NCBI RefSeq assembly: GCF_004295485.1
Contig: NZ_CP036164.1
Coordinates: 3,162,001-3,226,000 of the forward strand
Source: Janibacter limosus
Lineage (GTDB): Bacteria; Actinomycetota; Actinomycetes; Actinomycetales; Dermatophilaceae
Direction of reading: 5' to 3'
DNA length: 64,000 nt
The position numbers and the translations under genes are program-made. A model generated the notes under the pieces. It saw only the letters and a list, made by a program, of their open reading frames with translations. It ran no database searches and had not been told where the DNA came from. Below, in pieces: positions 1 through 4,854 of this stretch (within the stretch, counting starts at the first letter, position 1; each line of letters starts with the position of its first letter).

Positions 1-386
1 TGTCCGCCAGGGCGCATGGCATCGGCAATGTTGGCGAAGAGGACCTCGTGATCGGCGATCCAGTGGAAGGTCGCGATGCTGATGCAGGCGTCCACGAGGG
101 ATGGCAGGTGGAGGGGCTGGGTCAGGTCGTGCTTGTAGGAGTCCAGACGAGGGTCGTTGATCTTTTCCTGGAGGACCTCGAGCATCCGGTCGGAAGCGTC
201 GACGGCGGTGACTCGACCGCGGGGCAGCCGCTCCAACAGCGCGGCCGTGTCGCGGCCGGTTCCTGCGCCTGCGTCCAGGACATGCTCGGCACCCGTCAGG
301 GTCACCTGCTCGAGGACTCTAGTCCCCCAGTGCTGGTGAGGCAGAGGAAGGGAGTCGTAGCTTCGGGCATTCCATTCACGTGGCAT
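1..386 (-). CDS. SAM-dependent methyltransferase (3' end beyond window)
   Basis: Reading the minus strand from an ATG at 386 gives an open frame running off the left edge, so only about 128 N-terminal residues are visible. They form a class I Rossmann methyltransferase: the SAM-binding motif I reads VLDAGAGTGRDTAALL, followed by the acidic strand end AVDASDRMLEVL and a motif-IV-like segment with CISIATFHWI. The last part resembles trans-aconitate methyltransferase-type small-molecule methyltransferases. It starts 33 bp after the stop of the preceding gene (420-2045) on the same strand, so it is probably the third gene of that operon. Substrate unknown. The pairing with a HemN-like radical SAM gene recalls the C10P/C10Q pair of CC-1065, but that is inference. 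Confidence 0.8.
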   Translation of the reverse strand, partial: MPREWNARSYDSLPLPHQHWGTRVLEQVTLTGAEHVLDAGAGTGRDTAALLERLPRGRVTAVDASDRMLEVLQEKINDPRLDSYKHDLTQPLHLPSLVDACISIATFHWIADHEVLFANIADAMRPGG

Positions 387-419
387 ACAAGGCTCCGATA
401 TGTGATGACGAGCTGGGGA

Positions 420-2045
420 TCAAGACGTGGCGAGTAGCTGATAAGTGGGGGCAGTGAAGCATGCGCGAGCCACCCTGTCGGGATCGACCACGTCGTGGTC
501 GTCAAGACTGAGGTAGGCCACCGCATTGCTCAATGCGCACGACTGGGCGTCCGTGCGCAGGTCGCGCCGAGCCTCGATCAGAATGCTCCACGGATCGTCG
601 GTTACGGAGGCAAGCGCTCGGCCGAGATCCAATCCGAGGGAGAGCAGGAGCAATTCTCCGGGGTCGGGCCCCCGGTCCAGTCCGCCTTCTTGCCATGGCT
701 GATCAATCACCAGTCCACCGTCGAGAGGCTGATGCGACAAGACCGTTGCGCTCAGCTGGGCCGCGACCAGTGCGGCGCGGTCCTGCGCGGGCAGGATCGG
801 CAGTTGCAACTCTGTGGCTCCAGTCGCCCCGACCATGCTGACCCGCAGTGGCAGCCCCGCGGTCACCGTTGCGGAGACAACGCCGGGCCTGTCACGGTCC
901 GAGAGGATGACTTCGGCCTGCAGGGCACGCGTCACCAGGTCCGTGTGGCCTGTGACAGCATCACGGCTCGATGCGGGGATCGCGAAGGGCCGCACAATCC
1001 GGGTCGACGCCCAGATCGAGGGCAGGGTCCTGGCGGTGACCTCGTCGCCCTGCCCCGTGACCTCGAGCCGGGAGGTCCACATGCAGGCCCATGGCTGGGC
1101 GTCGACCAACTCACGGGCATGGCGGCGAGAGTTCTCGACGGGGAGATCACGGTCGGTATCGAAGTCCTGAATGCGGGCGCTGATCCGCTGCTGCCCGGGC
1201 GTTCGCTCGGTTGAGGCCAGGGTCGCGATCGCGGCTGCGGGCCACTCAGCACCAATCCACGAGCGATGGAGCAGCACCGTCGTTGGCGTCAGTTGCGTCA
1301 GTCCCCGCACGTCACTCGTGGCCGCTGGCAGGACGCGCTCTGAGCGAAGGGTGACCACGGCCAGGTCGTCGAGGTTCGAGTGGATTTCACTCGCCCAGTA
1401 GGACTCAGACCAGTCCAGTGGGCTGACCTTTGCCACGTCGGGCAGGGAGGCGATCGCGTCAAGGTCCACTGGGGTGCCCTGTGACCAGTCGGCGCGGGCC
1501 GCATTGATGGCTACATCCAGCTGGGCTTGATGTGCCAGCCGGAGCAACAGCGAGGTCGCGAACGTGGTGCCCTCGATCTCTGTCAAGGGTTGGGTGCCAT
1601 CGCCTCGTGCAGAGACGCTCAAGGTGGCGCCCAGGTCGGTTGCCTCAAGGACCCGAGAGGACAGTCGGCTGTTGTCGATGACCAGGACCAGGTCGTGAGA
1701 GTGGCACAGTTCAGCGAAGGCCGCGATGTCCACGAGCGCGCCCTGATCGGTGATCGAGTCGAGCACGACGACCTGCGTCAACTCATCGACCTGGCCACCG
1801 ACATCTTCCAAGTTCGTCGCGTCCACCATCGACGTCGGGCGATCGTGCCGAAGCAAGTAGTCGGCGAGGTCGCTCGCACCCGCGATGGAGGCGGACACCA
1901 CCACCCGGCCCCCTCGATTCGACATCGCAAGAGCCGACAATGCCAACGCTTCGGTGACGGTCACTCCCACCATCAGGGTCCCGTCGCCACCGTCACCGGG
2001 CGACGTCGCCTGGGCGGTCGTGGCCGGCGCGCTCACCGACGGCAC
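420..2045 (-). CDS. Large protein with degenerate PLP-enzyme (Cys/Met metabolism-like) N-terminal fold, no catalytic lysine seen
   Basis: A 541-residue protein with a GTG start at 2045, overlapping the end of the upstream radical SAM gene by 13 bp, so translation is probably coupled. Residues of about 25-170 match the large-domain pattern of fold-type I cystathionine synthase/lyase-like enzymes: a turn like RGGRVVVSASIAG, then VDIAAFAELCHSHDLVLVIDNS, then DLGATLSVSARGD. In active relatives the last stretch reads SATKY, whose lysine binds PLP; here the lysine position is not conserved, so the domain looks like a pseudoenzyme. The remaining 350 or so residues match no family I recognise. It sits between a HemN-like protein and a methyltransferase, so a structural or substrate-binding role in the same pathway is plausible but unproven. 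Confidence 0.72.
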   Translation of the reverse strand: MPSVSAPATTAQATSPGDGGDGTLMVGVTVTEALALSALAMSNRGGRVVVSASIAGASDLADYLLRHDRPTSMVDATNLEDVGGQVDELTQVVVLDSITDQGALVDIAAFAELCHSHDLVLVIDNSRLSSRVLEATDLGATLSVSARGDGTQPLTEIEGTTFATSLLLRLAHQAQLDVAINAARADWSQGTPVDLDAIASLPDVAKVSPLDWSESYWASEIHSNLDDLAVVTLRSERVLPAATSDVRGLTQLTPTTVLLHRSWIGAEWPAAAIATLASTERTPGQQRISARIQDFDTDRDLPVENSRRHARELVDAQPWACMWTSRLEVTGQGDEVTARTLPSIWASTRIVRPFAIPASSRDAVTGHTDLVTRALQAEVILSDRDRPGVVSATVTAGLPLRVSMVGATGATELQLPILPAQDRAALVAAQLSATVLSHQPLDGGLVIDQPWQEGGLDRGPDPGELLLLSLGLDLGRALASVTDDPWSILIEARRDLRTDAQSCALSNAVAYLSLDDHDVVDPDRVARACFTAPTYQLLATS

Positions 2046-3493
2046 ACCGGGGCATCGGACAGGCCGATGCGCTGGTGGAAATAGTGCTCGATGATCTCCT
2101 CGTGCAGCGCCTCCCCATTGAGCGTCGGGATGAAGGCGTCACCGTTGTCCGTCTGAGTCACCAGGCCACGCTCGAGAAGGTCCGCGAAGGAGGACGCGAA
2201 GGGCTCCATCGAGACGAGGTCCGCGCCAAACTGCTCCTTGTAGCGTGCCAGACGGATCGGCTGGTTGGCCTTGAAGTTGAATCCCAGTGCCGTGCCAATC
2301 GCCTGATGTCCCTCCAAGCGCCGGCCAGGGGCCAGAGGGAGACCTTCCTCCTTCTGCATGAAGTTGGCGTACTTCCCGATATCAATCATGTTGTGGGTCT
2401 GGAGGAACTCTTCTCCGCCGCCGGTGAGCCACCCGTAAGCGCCCGGACCAACGGCAAGCATCGTGTCATAGTGCTCCCATTTGTCCTTGGAGGTGCGTGG
2501 GATATTTCCGCCTTCGTAGGTTTCGGGTCGGGACCACCATCCGCACGGGCTCGGAGAGTACCCGTCGCCGAGAAGTTCACCCACCGCCACTTCGCGCATG
2601 TCGTAGGTTTGATTCAACGATGGGAAACGGCCCTCTTGAATGAGTCGCTCTCGAACGCTGGGATTGTTCCAGACCGCGCGATTACCAATACCCATGTCTT
2701 GTCGGTCGGCATTGCGAAGACGGTAAATCGTGATGGTCGGAATGTCGAGATCCGTGAGGATCTCGAAGTCACGCCTCACGCTCTCAGGGGTTTGATAGGG
2801 CAGGCCAAACATCATGTCAACGTTGAACGGCATCCCAGTTGCCTTGAGATTCTCGATGGCTTCCAAAGATTGCGCGGCCGTGTGGCGGCGCTTCGTGAAG
2901 TCGTTGACCTCGTCCTGGAGGCTCTGAACGCCTAGGCTGAACCGATTAAATCCAAGGTCCAGCGCACGTTCCAGATTTTCCTTCGTGAAGTTTTCTGGAT
3001 TTCCCTCGATGTTGAACTCGACATCTGGCTGGATGGAGTACTCGCTGCGGACCCAGTCGACCAAGGGCGCGATGGTTTGAGTGCTGTTCAGCATCAGAGC
3101 AGCAGTTCCGCCACCGATGTAGAACGAGCCGATTTTGGCATCAGCCATCCACGGGGCATTTTTGAGCTGCCGGCGCGACTCTTCGATGAGGAGGTCCTGC
3201 CACAACAGGAGGGAAGCGTCTTCCTTACCTCGAGGGATCAGGCGCTTGACGTAGTTGCAGAAGTGGCAGATGTAATTGCACAGGGGCAGATGAAAGTACA
3301 GATGAGCGCGCTTGCCTGCCCCATCGAAGTTCGCGATGGCCCGCTTGCACTCTTCGACACTCACTCCCTCGCCACTGTTTGATGTGACATTGATGTTGTA
3401 TTCGTCTCGGTCGACCTGAAGGTGCTTATTGGCCTCCAGCAAGGCGCCAAGGTTCAGCTCAACGTCTGGTTCTGAAATGTCCGATGCAATCAT
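2033..3493 (-). CDS. HemN-like radical SAM protein
   Basis: A 486-residue radical SAM enzyme of the coproporphyrinogen-oxidase-like (HemN) family. The cluster motif CNYICHFC (CX3CX2C) is near residue 73, followed by GGGTAAL (the HemN GGGTPS motif), a FNIEGNP strand and a GVQSLQDEV segment. A HemN C-terminal-type domain appears to follow. The ATG at 3493 is preceded by a GGGGGA ribosome-binding site. The neighbours are not haem genes: the next genes are a PLP-fold pseudoenzyme and a SAM methyltransferase, with a phosphopantetheinyl transferase divergently upstream. That argues for specialised metabolism (for example class C radical methylation or cyclopropanation, as with C10P, Jaw5 or NosN) rather than haem synthesis. 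The substrate cannot be read from sequence. G+C is visibly lower than in the genes after 5 kb. Confidence 0.88.
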   Translation of the reverse strand: MIASDISEPDVELNLGALLEANKHLQVDRDEYNINVTSNSGEGVSVEECKRAIANFDGAGKRAHLYFHLPLCNYICHFCNYVKRLIPRGKEDASLLLWQDLLIEESRRQLKNAPWMADAKIGSFYIGGGTAALMLNSTQTIAPLVDWVRSEYSIQPDVEFNIEGNPENFTKENLERALDLGFNRFSLGVQSLQDEVNDFTKRRHTAAQSLEAIENLKATGMPFNVDMMFGLPYQTPESVRRDFEILTDLDIPTITIYRLRNADRQDMGIGNRAVWNNPSVRERLIQEGRFPSLNQTYDMREVAVGELLGDGYSPSPCGWWSRPETYEGGNIPRTSKDKWEHYDTMLAVGPGAYGWLTGGGEEFLQTHNMIDIGKYANFMQKEEGLPLAPGRRLEGHQAIGTALGFNFKANQPIRLARYKEQFGADLVSMEPFASSFADLLERGLVTQTDNGDAFIPTLNGEALHEEIIEHYFHQRIGLSDAPVCRR

Positions 3494-3826
3494 GAGTCCC
3501 CCAAGTGTCGACGATAGTGACGCGGTATCGCGCAGCTGGCCGCGAGGTCGGAACCTCTAGCCGAATGCAGCCTGACACAGCAATCGGCGATCTGCATCTG
3601 GTTGATCCGTCAACTTCCTCACGGTCCCCATTGCTCCTTTCGCTTCCTCGGTCCACCGAGAAACATTTACCATTTCCCGACGATTCTTAAGACGGCTCTT
3701 CACAGATGAGGGTGTAGCGCGTGGTCAAGGATCGATCAGCGGGGCGCTGCCCGGGTAGGTGTCGCCACGAGATCGAACGCCGACCGCTGCTGCCGAGGCT
3801 GTGGCTGTGAAGGAACCGCGCGACAC

Positions 3827-4055
3827 CATGTCGAGGGCCGCTCCAAACAGGTCTTCAAGGAGTGGCTCGCCGCTCGCCCCGAGGCATGGCGTCAGAGCGT
3901 TGGGGTCGTTGCGATGGATGGATTCACCAGTTCAAGAGCGCCACGACCGAGGATCTTCCGAGGCCCCCGCGTTCACGGATCCCTTTAAGGAACCGCACCG
4001 GCACCACGGCCGCAAAGACGACGTGCTTTACCGAGATCGACGCAGCGCCCTGGGC
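3827..4055 (+). pseudogene. Decayed ISL3-family transposase fragment
   Basis: The 690-bp gap between the radical SAM gene and the phosphopantetheinyl transferase contains no intact gene but carries pieces of a transposase in shifting plus-strand frames. From 3827 one frame gives HVEGRSKQVFKEWLAARPEA and then VVAMDGFT. The next frame gives FKSATTEDLP and, further on, a DPF motif. Near 4002 another reads HHGRKDDVLYRDRR. In order these match the middle of ISL3-type transposases (VEGRSKQAFKxWLA, VVAMDGFTGFKTA, MDPFHV, HRGRKDDPLYRARR). At least two frameshifts and missing ends make it non-functional. I saw no terminal inverted repeats. It marks past insertion-element activity beside the putative biosynthetic genes. 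Confidence 0.75.
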
Positions 4056-4173
4056 TTCAACGCCTCAGCTGGTTGGACTGCGTTCCGAGACTGATGGCCA
4101 CCTCATTCGACGCGCACTACGCTGAGGACGACCGGTCGTTCGACCGGTCTTCCCTGAGTAGACCGCGAACGAG

Positions 4174-4179
4174 AAGGAG
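4174..4179 (+). promoter_or_regulatory. Ribosome-binding site suggesting a CTG start
   Basis: AAGGAG stands 6 nt before a CTG codon at 4186. The frame is closed by a TAG at 4159 and contains no ATG, GTG or TTG before the GTG at 4282. Residues encoded between 4186 and 4282 still resemble phosphopantetheinyl transferase N-termini, so this site favours a non-canonical CTG start. Confidence 0.5.
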
Positions 4180-4185
4180 CCACTG

Positions 4186-4854
4186 CTGAGCCCCGTCGGC
4201 GCGTCCGCACTCCTGCGTGCTGTTCTCGGCCCCGGGCCAGCAGTTCGTGAACTGCGTGGCCAGGGCAACCCGTCGAACCTTGTGGGTCCTGAGGTCCAGG
4301 TCGTGGCTCGCGCGATCGAATCTCGTCGCAGAGAATTTGCTGCTGGACGTTCCTGCGCGAGAGAAGCAGCTCTCGAGACGGGTCATGACCTTGGTCCACT
4401 CCTGTCTGGCCCGACCCGCGAACCTCTCTGGCCGTCCGACCTCGTCGGTAGCATCACCCATTGCGCCGGCTTCGCTGGAGCGGCCGTGGCGCCCGCGACA
4501 CACTGGCGCGGCCTGGGCATCGACTGCGAACCCGCCCGACCGCTACCTACTGAACTCATCGGCGCCATCCTGACGGCACGCGAGAGGTTCACCGTGGCAC
4601 AACTCAGAGAATCTGAAGAGCGCCCTTGGGAGCGCATCATTTTCAGCGCCAAGGAGTCGCTTTTCAAGACATGGTTTCCGCTGCGCCGCACCTGGCTTGG
4701 CTTTGATGAGGCCGAGGTTGCCCTTCAGCCGGATGGCACCTTCCAAGCTGAGATCCTCGTCCTTGACACCGGTCCCCACCCTCGGACGGTGTTCGGTCGA
4801 TGGAGGATCGACAGGGGTCTCATCGTCACCGGGCTCGCCCTGCCCGCACCCTGA
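4186..4854 (+). CDS. 4'-phosphopantetheinyl transferase (EntD/Sfp superfamily)
   Basis: Transfers phosphopantetheine from CoA to carrier proteins of NRPS, PKS or fatty-acid systems. From the proposed CTG start the protein is 222 residues; from the first conventional codon (GTG at 4282) it is 190. Family motifs are clear: RRREFAAGRSCAR near the N-terminus, VGSITHC, the magnesium-binding GIDCEPARPL, and the core FSAKESLFKTWFPL (the [WF]xxKEaxxK signature). The longer start restores the usual length and N-terminal segment. It stands divergent from the HemN-like operon with a dead transposase between. A dedicated PPTase next to radical SAM and methyltransferase genes suggests a carrier-protein pathway beyond the window, but it could also be the cell's general Sfp-type enzyme. 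Confidence 0.87.
   Translation: MSPVGASALLRAVLGPGPAVRELRGQGNPSNLVGPEVQVVARAIESRRREFAAGRSCAREAALETGHDLGPLLSGPTREPLWPSDLVGSITHCAGFAGAAVAPATHWRGLGIDCEPARPLPTELIGAILTARERFTVAQLRESEERPWERIIFSAKESLFKTWFPLRRTWLGFDEAEVALQPDGTFQAEILVLDTGPHPRTVFGRWRIDRGLIVTGLALPAP

What the first reader, a model, noticed from the sequence alone, without database searches (positions are those of the whole stretch)
1..3493. HemN-like radical SAM, PLP-fold pseudoenzyme and SAM methyltransferase in one operon
Seen: three tightly packed minus-strand genes (13-bp overlap, 33-bp gap), next to a phosphopantetheinyl transferase and a dead transposase, in DNA less G+C-rich than the rest. Known: HemN-like radical SAM proteins work with a SAM methyltransferase in cyclopropane formation (C10P/C10Q in CC-1065) or act as class C radical methylases (NosN, Jaw5). 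Inferred: a similar two-enzyme chemistry with an added protein that I cannot place. The gene set with a large degenerate PLP-fold partner is one I do not know from any described pathway.
Basis: partly seen in the sequence, partly recalled or inferred. Interest (0 to 1): 0.75.

Follow-up and report, generated by a model that had tools for sequence, protein, structure and literature searches.

The report
Peptide-antibiotic operon with radical enzyme
The three genes are the start of a nine-gene operon that probably makes an unusual small peptide, and a close relative of its radical enzyme sits beside a short gene-encoded peptide in other bacteria, which suggests a reusable and so far undescribed way to modify amino acids.

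Summary
The three genes are real. They open a nine-gene minus-strand operon running about 5.7 kb past the left window edge: HemN-like radical SAM, 541-aa fusion, class I methyltransferase, stand-alone A domain, tautomerase-like, TrmO-like, T-TE, alpha/beta hydrolase, MFS; a convergent A-T-C NRPS gene follows. The "large PLP-fold protein" fuses a cystathionine-gamma-synthase (CGS) relative without catalytic Lys or N-terminal lobe to a degenerate OsmC relative; they are separate genes elsewhere. The set is conserved in 13 of 13 distinct loci (radical SAM 72-76% identical in the eight first found). The radical SAM protein is below the cut-offs of HemN, HemW and HutW; it keeps the residues checked that bind two SAM in NocN, most of which HemN and HemW share too, Tyr96 and Arg230 excepted. 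Four clusters of a family inferred to be Streptomycetaceae carry this enzyme (54-61% between types) with the tautomerase-like and TrmO-like proteins, but no NRPS, CGS or OsmC match in the stretches searched; they have a SPASM radical SAM gene and a short translated peptide gene (putative RiPP). The portable core is thus radical SAM, tautomerase-like, TrmO-like (and MFS). Product and reaction are unknown; ten full-text searches found no description.

The parts
2033..3493 (-). HemN-like radical SAM protein, 486 aa, first gene of the operon; CX3CX2C at C72, C76, C79; pocket residues Y66, Y125, E163, R184, R202, D226, T255, R260
420..2045 (-). 541-aa fusion of a CGS-like pseudoenzyme and a degenerate OsmC-like protein
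1178..2045 (-). CGS-like (Cys/Met metabolism PLP fold) half, about residues 1-290; Lys column is a gap and the N-terminal lobe is missing; the boundary is approximate
420..1177 (-). OsmC-like half, about residues 290-541, shortened; the first-Cys column is a gap
   Evidence: fold from the relatives
1..386 (-). class I SAM methyltransferase (Tam-like), N-terminal part; the C-terminal part lies outside the window (whole gene 246 aa = L004:3646-4386 -)
4282..4854 (+). phosphopantetheinyl transferase (PptT/Npt-like), possibly the activator of the carrier domains; its membership of the cluster is inferred from position only

Best explanation
The genes are the head of an NRPS-linked operon that makes a small peptide containing one chemically modified amino acid. 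Proposed order: the stand-alone A domain activates an amino acid and loads it on the T domain of the T-TE protein (inferred). The CGS-like/OsmC-like fusion, without the usual catalytic residues, acts as a binding or presenting protein for the carrier-bound substrate (inferred). The radical SAM protein binds two SAM molecules, makes a SAM methylene radical and adds it to an sp2 carbon of the substrate (pocket residues conserved, reaction inferred). A SAM-type partner (the class I methyltransferase, the TrmO-like protein or both) resolves the adduct to a methyl group or a cyclopropane, and the tautomerase-like protein sets or moves the double bond (inferred). TE releases the product, the A-T-C protein (an ATP-grasp protein in 11 of the 12 other loci) couples it to a second residue, and the MFS protein exports it (inferred). 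Shown: operon, conservation, loss of the catalytic Lys, pocket residues.
For: Nine genes on one strand with gaps from -17 to +33 bp, with A, T-TE, TrmO, hydrolase and MFS families and a convergent A-T-C gene (HHxxxDG-type motif read by eye). Conserved in 13 of 13 distinct loci: radical SAM, CGS-like, OsmC-like, methyltransferase, TrmO-like, T-TE, hydrolase, MFS and an A domain (in L040 the A domain is cut by the contig end). Catalytic Lys absent in 13 of 13 but present in 4 of 4 CGS relatives beside OsmC-like genes, in genomes without a radical SAM match. The residues checked of those that NocN uses for two SAMs are kept in 9 of 9 NRPS-type and 4 of 4 RiPP-type sequences tabulated, S225 as Thr (NocN numbering from passages of PMC12871812). 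A tautomerase-like stretch and TrmO-like are one ORF in L082. C10P/C10Q gives a precedent for radical SAM plus methyltransferase (passages of PMC6050322).
Against: Most pocket residues are also present in HemN and HemW, so they do not by themselves show methylase chemistry; only Tyr96 and Arg230 set NocN and this family apart from HemN and HemW in that table. No substrate with an sp2 carbon is evident: the A-domain codes, read by eye with recalled positions, look Val-like. The methyltransferase of the RiPP-type clusters is only 27-28% like ours over about 110 residues, so it may not belong to the radical step. The tautomerase assignment is weak by Pfam (16.6 and 13.8 bits against 22, nothing in L082). 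The window fusion is only 24-29% identical to its relatives, which could also mean decay. The AlphaFold model of the fusion is unusable (pLDDT 42.8). No activity or product is known.
Confidence: 0.37

Rival explanations
1. The radical SAM protein is a simple class C C-methylase (NosN/NocN-like outcome), and the class I methyltransferase and TrmO-like protein do separate N-, O- or carboxyl methylations; no cyclopropane is made.
For: NocN is one of the two best PDB relatives (60.5 bits single, 71.2 bits profile) and its Arg230 and Tyr96 are kept; the methyltransferase differs between the two cluster types.
Against: The tautomerase-like and TrmO-like genes travel with the radical SAM gene in both cluster types (tautomerase-like in 11 of 13 NRPS-type and 4 of 4 RiPP-type loci), in one ORF in L082, which suggests a multi-step modification.
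Confidence: 0.3
2. The CGS-like/OsmC-like pair is still an enzyme with new chemistry (for example SAM- or sulfonium-directed without a Schiff base, or using other cysteines), and the radical SAM protein acts on its product.
For: The pair is retained in 13 of 13 loci although Lys is lost; four related CGS proteins look intact; other Cys columns of the OsmC-like protein are shared by 5 to 7 of the 8 separate NRPS-type copies aligned; metK lies beside the cluster in 6 of 13 loci.
Against: Lys is Pro in ten loci, Leu in two and a gap in the window; the N-terminal lobe is gone; the first-Cys column holds Cys in 1 of 9 NRPS-type copies, the other Cys columns are absent in L044 and the window; the window copy is strongly diverged.
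Confidence: 0.15
3. The cluster in this genome is a decaying, horizontally acquired remnant that is not functional; intact copies act elsewhere.
For: Present in 1 of 16 genomes of the genus; lower G+C; fused and strongly diverged pseudoenzyme pair.
Against: All nine ORFs are open and tightly packed; the radical SAM protein is 72-76% identical to eight orthologues with every checked residue kept; a near-identical MAG fragment carries the genes it covers (L045).
Confidence: 0.12

Closest known systems
C10P/C10Q cyclopropanase (CC-1065)
   Same: HemN-like radical SAM enzyme and class I methyltransferase in one biosynthetic cluster (passages of PMC6050322)
   Different: Here an NRPS-linked operon with tautomerase-like, TrmO-like and pseudoenzyme proteins; relation to C10P/C10Q sequences not tested
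NocN/NosN class C radical SAM methylases
   Same: CX3CX2C motif and the pocket residues checked, including Tyr96 and Arg230 (residues from PMC12871812 passages)
   Different: 71-bit profile match limited to the radical SAM core; in the first tree NocN falls outside the window clade, with weak backbone support; Ile302 of its C-terminal domain was not compared
HemN, HemW, HutW/ChuW
   Same: HemN superfamily motif and most pocket residues (for HemN and HemW); HutW gives the best NCBIfam score (143.6 bits)
   Different: All far below the curated cut-offs (325, 205, 400 bits)
GnmY and Orf29/Orf30 (ACC and methyl-ACC formation)
   Same: PLP-type and radical SAM proteins serving NRPS-linked pathways (passages of PMC7277169, PMC10491745)
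   Different: GnmY uses Lys251 and is of the aspartate aminotransferase superfamily; Orf29 is cobalamin-dependent; here the PLP-type protein is CGS-like and has no Lys
TvgB (cyclopropylglycine in a RiPP)
   Same: Radical SAM modification in a RiPP context (passages of PMC9062424)
   Different: Its paper contrasts it with two-component HemN-like systems; no TvgB sequence was compared here

Membership tests
Class C radical SAM methylase (HemN-like) | CX3CX2C cluster motif | tested here: met
   C72, C76, C79, present in every row tabulated
Class C radical SAM methylase (HemN-like) | residues that bind two SAM molecules in NocN | tested here: met
   Y66, Y125, R184, R202, D226, R260 identical, S225 is Thr255, in 9 NRPS-type and 4 RiPP-type sequences; most are shared with HemN and HemW, so not diagnostic alone
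Class C radical SAM methylase (HemN-like) | SAM-derived one-carbon transfer to sp2 carbon | not testable with these tools
   needs assay
HemN / HemW / HutW | curated NCBIfam cut-off | tested here: not met
   98.9/325, 117.5/205, 143.6/400 bits
C10P/C10Q two-component cyclopropanase | HemN-like radical SAM with class I methyltransferase in one cluster | tested here: met
   gene content only
C10P/C10Q two-component cyclopropanase | phylogenetic grouping with C10P and C10Q | not tested
Cys/Met metabolism PLP enzymes (CGS family) | fold relationship by profile | tested here: met
   169.5 bits for L038, 34 bits for the window
Cys/Met metabolism PLP enzymes (CGS family) | catalytic Schiff-base Lys | tested here: not met
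   absent in 13 of 13 NRPS-type copies; present in 4 of 4 relatives without radical SAM match
OsmC/Ohr peroxidases | OsmC fold | tested here: inconclusive
   Pfam 20, 37.5 and 22 bits in three relatives, one above the cut-off of 27.5; Foldseek OsmC-type hits at probability up to 1.00 but no E below 0.001
OsmC/Ohr peroxidases | redox Cys pair (positions recalled) | tested here: not met
   first-Cys column: Cys in L041 only of 9 NRPS-type copies, but Cys in 4 of 4 relatives beside intact CGS; the second Cys is seen in neither group by eye
TrmO (tRNA m6t6A methyltransferase) | NCBIfam equivalog cut-off | tested here: not met
   77.2 of 93.25 bits; PF01980 domain met (86.8 bits)
4-OT-type tautomerase | Pfam gathering score | tested here: not met
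   16.6 of 22 bits, 13.8 in L083, none in L082; begins Met-Pro as such enzymes do (recalled)
RiPP pathway (the four related clusters only) | translated short precursor gene beside the maturase | tested here: met
   46-52 aa ORF in 4 of 4; 9 synonymous and 0 non-synonymous base differences between L082 and L096; the L083 ORF is divergent
RiPP pathway (the four related clusters only) | peptide is modified and becomes the product | not testable with these tools
   needs mass spectrometry

The most novel reading that the evidence does not exclude
A portable modification cassette (HemN-like two-SAM radical enzyme, tautomerase-like protein, beta-barrel TrmO-like SAM enzyme, exporter) that is plugged either into an NRPS line, where a dead CGS/OsmC pair presents the carrier-bound amino acid, or into a ribosomal-peptide line with a SPASM radical SAM enzyme. 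The TrmO-like protein would close the ring on the SAM adduct, a new role for that fold.
Probability: 0.22. Interest if true: 0.85.

Novelty: new variant of a known kind. Interest (0 to 1): 0.62.

Why it matters
If right, one radical SAM module serves both carrier-bound amino acids and a ribosomal peptide, which would be an unusual natural link between the two main peptide-antibiotic logics and a new source of modified amino acids. The conserved loss of catalytic residues in a CGS-type protein, with intact relatives next to the same kind of partner, gives a clean case of a pseudoenzyme recruited into biosynthesis, testable by gene deletion in available Streptomyces.

Tried and rejected
Rejected: true HemN, HemW or HutW. 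Rejected: the trio as the minimal unit. Rejected: the Sinorhizobium, Cupriavidus and Duffyella plasmid radical SAM genes as members; they are 25-27% identical, sit with glycosyltransferases and differ at pocket residues. Led nowhere: protein homology database (off), AlphaFold of the fusion, phylum search with the fusion (62 of 396 genomes matched, one of them the window's own; the other listed matches cover short stretches, mostly the CGS-type part), plasmid search with the fusion (4 records, all partial). A-domain codes (positions recalled, aligned by eye): DVLWFGGVFK and DGLWLGGVFK here, Val-like; not proof. metK: beside the cluster in 6 of 13 loci (L037, L038, L039, L041; L097, L101); not beside it in 5 (window and L053, whose genomes show their single match elsewhere; L042, L044, L099 within the fetched stretch); unseen in 2 (L040, L043, contig ends). 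A control genome without the cluster has two metK copies, so metK is weak evidence. Papers: ten searches; listings seen, and passages only in PMC6050322, PMC10491745, PMC7277169, PMC9062424 and PMC12871812; no description of this gene set was seen. Rows not examined: 7 of 11 radical SAM hits (30-32% identity), of the 381 plasmid records all but the eight opened, and the CGS-type hits. On re-checking, the confidence of the best explanation was lowered from 0.40 to 0.37, because most pocket residues prove to be shared with HemN and HemW and the tautomerase call is weak in the relatives too.
Full report
What is there. The window is bases 3162001-3226000 of a single-contig 3.55-Mb genome. The three reported genes exist at the stated coordinates. 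The flank fetched from the genome shows that they start a nine-gene minus-strand operon: radical SAM, 541-aa fusion, class I methyltransferase (246 aa), stand-alone A domain (501 aa), tautomerase-like (132 aa), TrmO-like (170 aa), T-TE (352 aa), alpha/beta hydrolase (218 aa) and MFS exporter (410 aa), with gaps from -17 to +33 bp. A convergent 1049-aa A-T-C protein follows. The tautomerase call is weak by Pfam (16.6 bits against a cut-off of 22; 13.8 bits in L083 and nothing in L082).

Conservation. A scan of genome contigs (one genome for each of 84,980 species) with the radical SAM protein gave 10 loci: eight long relatives at 72-76% identity, one near-identical MAG fragment and one short, doubtful match. 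A search of 297 genomes of one unnamed family (inferred to be Streptomycetaceae, because some of its contigs have the lengths of named Streptomyces and Streptacidiphilus contigs) gave 11 radical SAM matches: two at 74-76%, two at 55-56%, seven at 30-32%. A search of 392 genomes of one genus of that family with the protein of L083 gave 10 matches, all of whose neighbourhoods were read. All 13 hold radical SAM, CGS-like, OsmC-like, methyltransferase, TrmO-like, T-TE, hydrolase, MFS and an A domain (in L040 the A domain is cut by the contig end). Eleven hold an ATP-grasp gene (Pfam-confirmed for L038, 45 bits; the others by tblastn with it, 41% identical in L044); L037 and the window have a C domain instead (for L037). 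The tautomerase-like gene is seen in 11 of 13 (not in L044; L040 ends first). In the window's own genus 1 of 16 genomes has the radical SAM gene, and the genes are less G+C-rich than the window, so the cluster was probably acquired.

The PLP-fold protein. In the 12 other loci it is two adjacent genes. The first is a CGS relative (169.5 bits to PF01053 in L038) that begins some 75-95 residues late relative to its intact relatives and has Pro (ten loci) or Leu (two) in place of the catalytic Lys; in the window that column is a gap. Lys is absent in 13 of 13. The second is OsmC-like (20, 37.5 and 22 bits in three copies, one above the cut-off), and a model of the L037 copy (pLDDT 66.3, pTM 0.72) finds OsmC-type structures at probability up to 1.00, though with no E-value below 0.001 and with methionine adenosyltransferases ranked among them at low probability. 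A profile of the OsmC-like protein found 6 of 297 genomes: two belong to the set above; four weaker ones (72.8-102.4 bits) lie beside a CGS gene that keeps the Lys and the N-terminal lobe (4 of 4). Around those pairs NRPS-type matches were seen in three and only a thioesterase-type match in L057; none of the four genomes is among the radical SAM matches. These OsmC-like partners keep Cys in the first-Cys column, but like the NRPS-type copies they show no second Cys at the recalled place. The window CGS half therefore looks like a decayed relative of an active enzyme; for the OsmC half this is less certain, since 5 to 7 of the 8 separate NRPS-type copies share other Cys columns. The AlphaFold model of the window fusion itself is unusable.

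The radical SAM protein. NCBIfam scores are far below the cut-offs of HutW, HemW and HemN. The closest solved structures by sequence are HemN (1olt) and NocN (9p2u), over the radical SAM core only. A preprint on NocN (PMC12871812, passages read) names residues that bind two SAM molecules; mapped by alignment, Y34, C40, C44, C47, Y96, R153, R171, D196 and R230 are identical and S225 is Thr in 9 NRPS-type and 4 RiPP-type sequences. E132, also identical, was added by me; Ile302 of the NocN C-terminal domain was not compared. Of these, HemN and HemW rows share all but Y96 and R230 and in part S225 (R230 lies outside the 1olt fragment used), so the pocket points to the HemN superfamily and only Y96 and R230 point to NocN. 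The glycosyltransferase-linked relatives differ at Y34, Y96, R153, S225 and R230. A tree of the core groups NRPS-type (support 97) and RiPP-type (98) together (100); the deeper nodes range from 38 to 95, so the place relative to HemN, HemW and NocN is not settled. C10P, NosN, HutW and Jaw5 were not included.

The second cluster type. L082, L083, L095 and L096 carry the radical SAM enzyme (54-61% to nine NRPS-type sequences) followed by a hydrolase-like gene, a methyltransferase 27-28% like ours over about 110 residues (L082 and L083), tautomerase-like, TrmO-like (62-65% to the second TrmO-like protein of L038) and MFS. No NRPS, CGS or OsmC match was found in these 20-kb stretches at E 0.001. 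In L082 the tautomerase-like and TrmO-like stretches are one 294-aa ORF. Upstream lies a SPASM radical SAM protein (Pfam for L082 and L083; tblastn 85-92% for the other two) and, between the two radical SAM genes, a 46-52-aa ORF. L082 and L096 differ in this ORF at nine bases, all third positions and all synonymous, so it is a translated gene and a plausible RiPP precursor; the L083 ORF is only partly similar. No such peptide was found by pattern in the other loci fetched, the NRPS-type ones included.

Mechanism. C10P and C10Q show that a HemN-like enzyme can add a SAM methylene to an sp2 carbon and a methyltransferase can close a cyclopropane (PMC6050322, passages). I propose the same kind of first step here, on an amino acid bound to the T domain of the T-TE protein, with the methyltransferase or the TrmO-like protein resolving the adduct and the tautomerase-like protein setting the double bond. 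Only the pocket residues, the gene linkage and the loss of the catalytic Lys are shown. Against it: no sp2 substrate is evident, and the A-domain codes, read by eye with recalled positions, look Val-like. Simple C-methylation is a close rival.

Novelty. Ten full-text searches in an open-access library found no description of this gene set; papers outside that library were not searched. Class C radical SAM chemistry is known, so I file this as a new variant of a known kind, with a bolder reading kept open.

Noticed in passing
L055, L056, L057, L058 (G935, G1006, G884, G952): A CGS-type protein with Lys and N-terminal lobe kept, next to an OsmC-like protein; NRPS-type matches nearby in three, a thioesterase-type match in L057, no radical SAM match in those genomes. 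Function unknown to me.
   Followed up: partly
L082:10967-11125, L083:8614-8754, L095:9236-9394, L096:8985-9143: Short peptide genes (near-identical in three, divergent in L083) between a SPASM radical SAM gene and the HemN-like radical SAM gene; putative RiPP precursors.
   Followed up: yes
L027, L028, L029; L031-L035: A HemN-like radical SAM family next to glycosyltransferases on Sinorhizobium, Cupriavidus and Duffyella plasmids, with relatives in some genomes of the window's class; pocket residues differ from NocN.
   Followed up: partly
L067:1457-7317: Burkholderia stagnalis plasmid cluster with a DUF692 protein, two methyltransferase-domain proteins and a HemN-like radical SAM protein that keeps the checked NocN pocket residues (S225 as Thr).
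   Followed up: no
L045: A Propionibacteriales MAG contig whose proteins are 99.6-100% identical to the window genes it covers.
   Followed up: no
window 3494-4281: Stretch between the operon and the phosphopantetheinyl transferase that reads like broken transposase pieces by eye; Pfam did not confirm it.
   Followed up: partly
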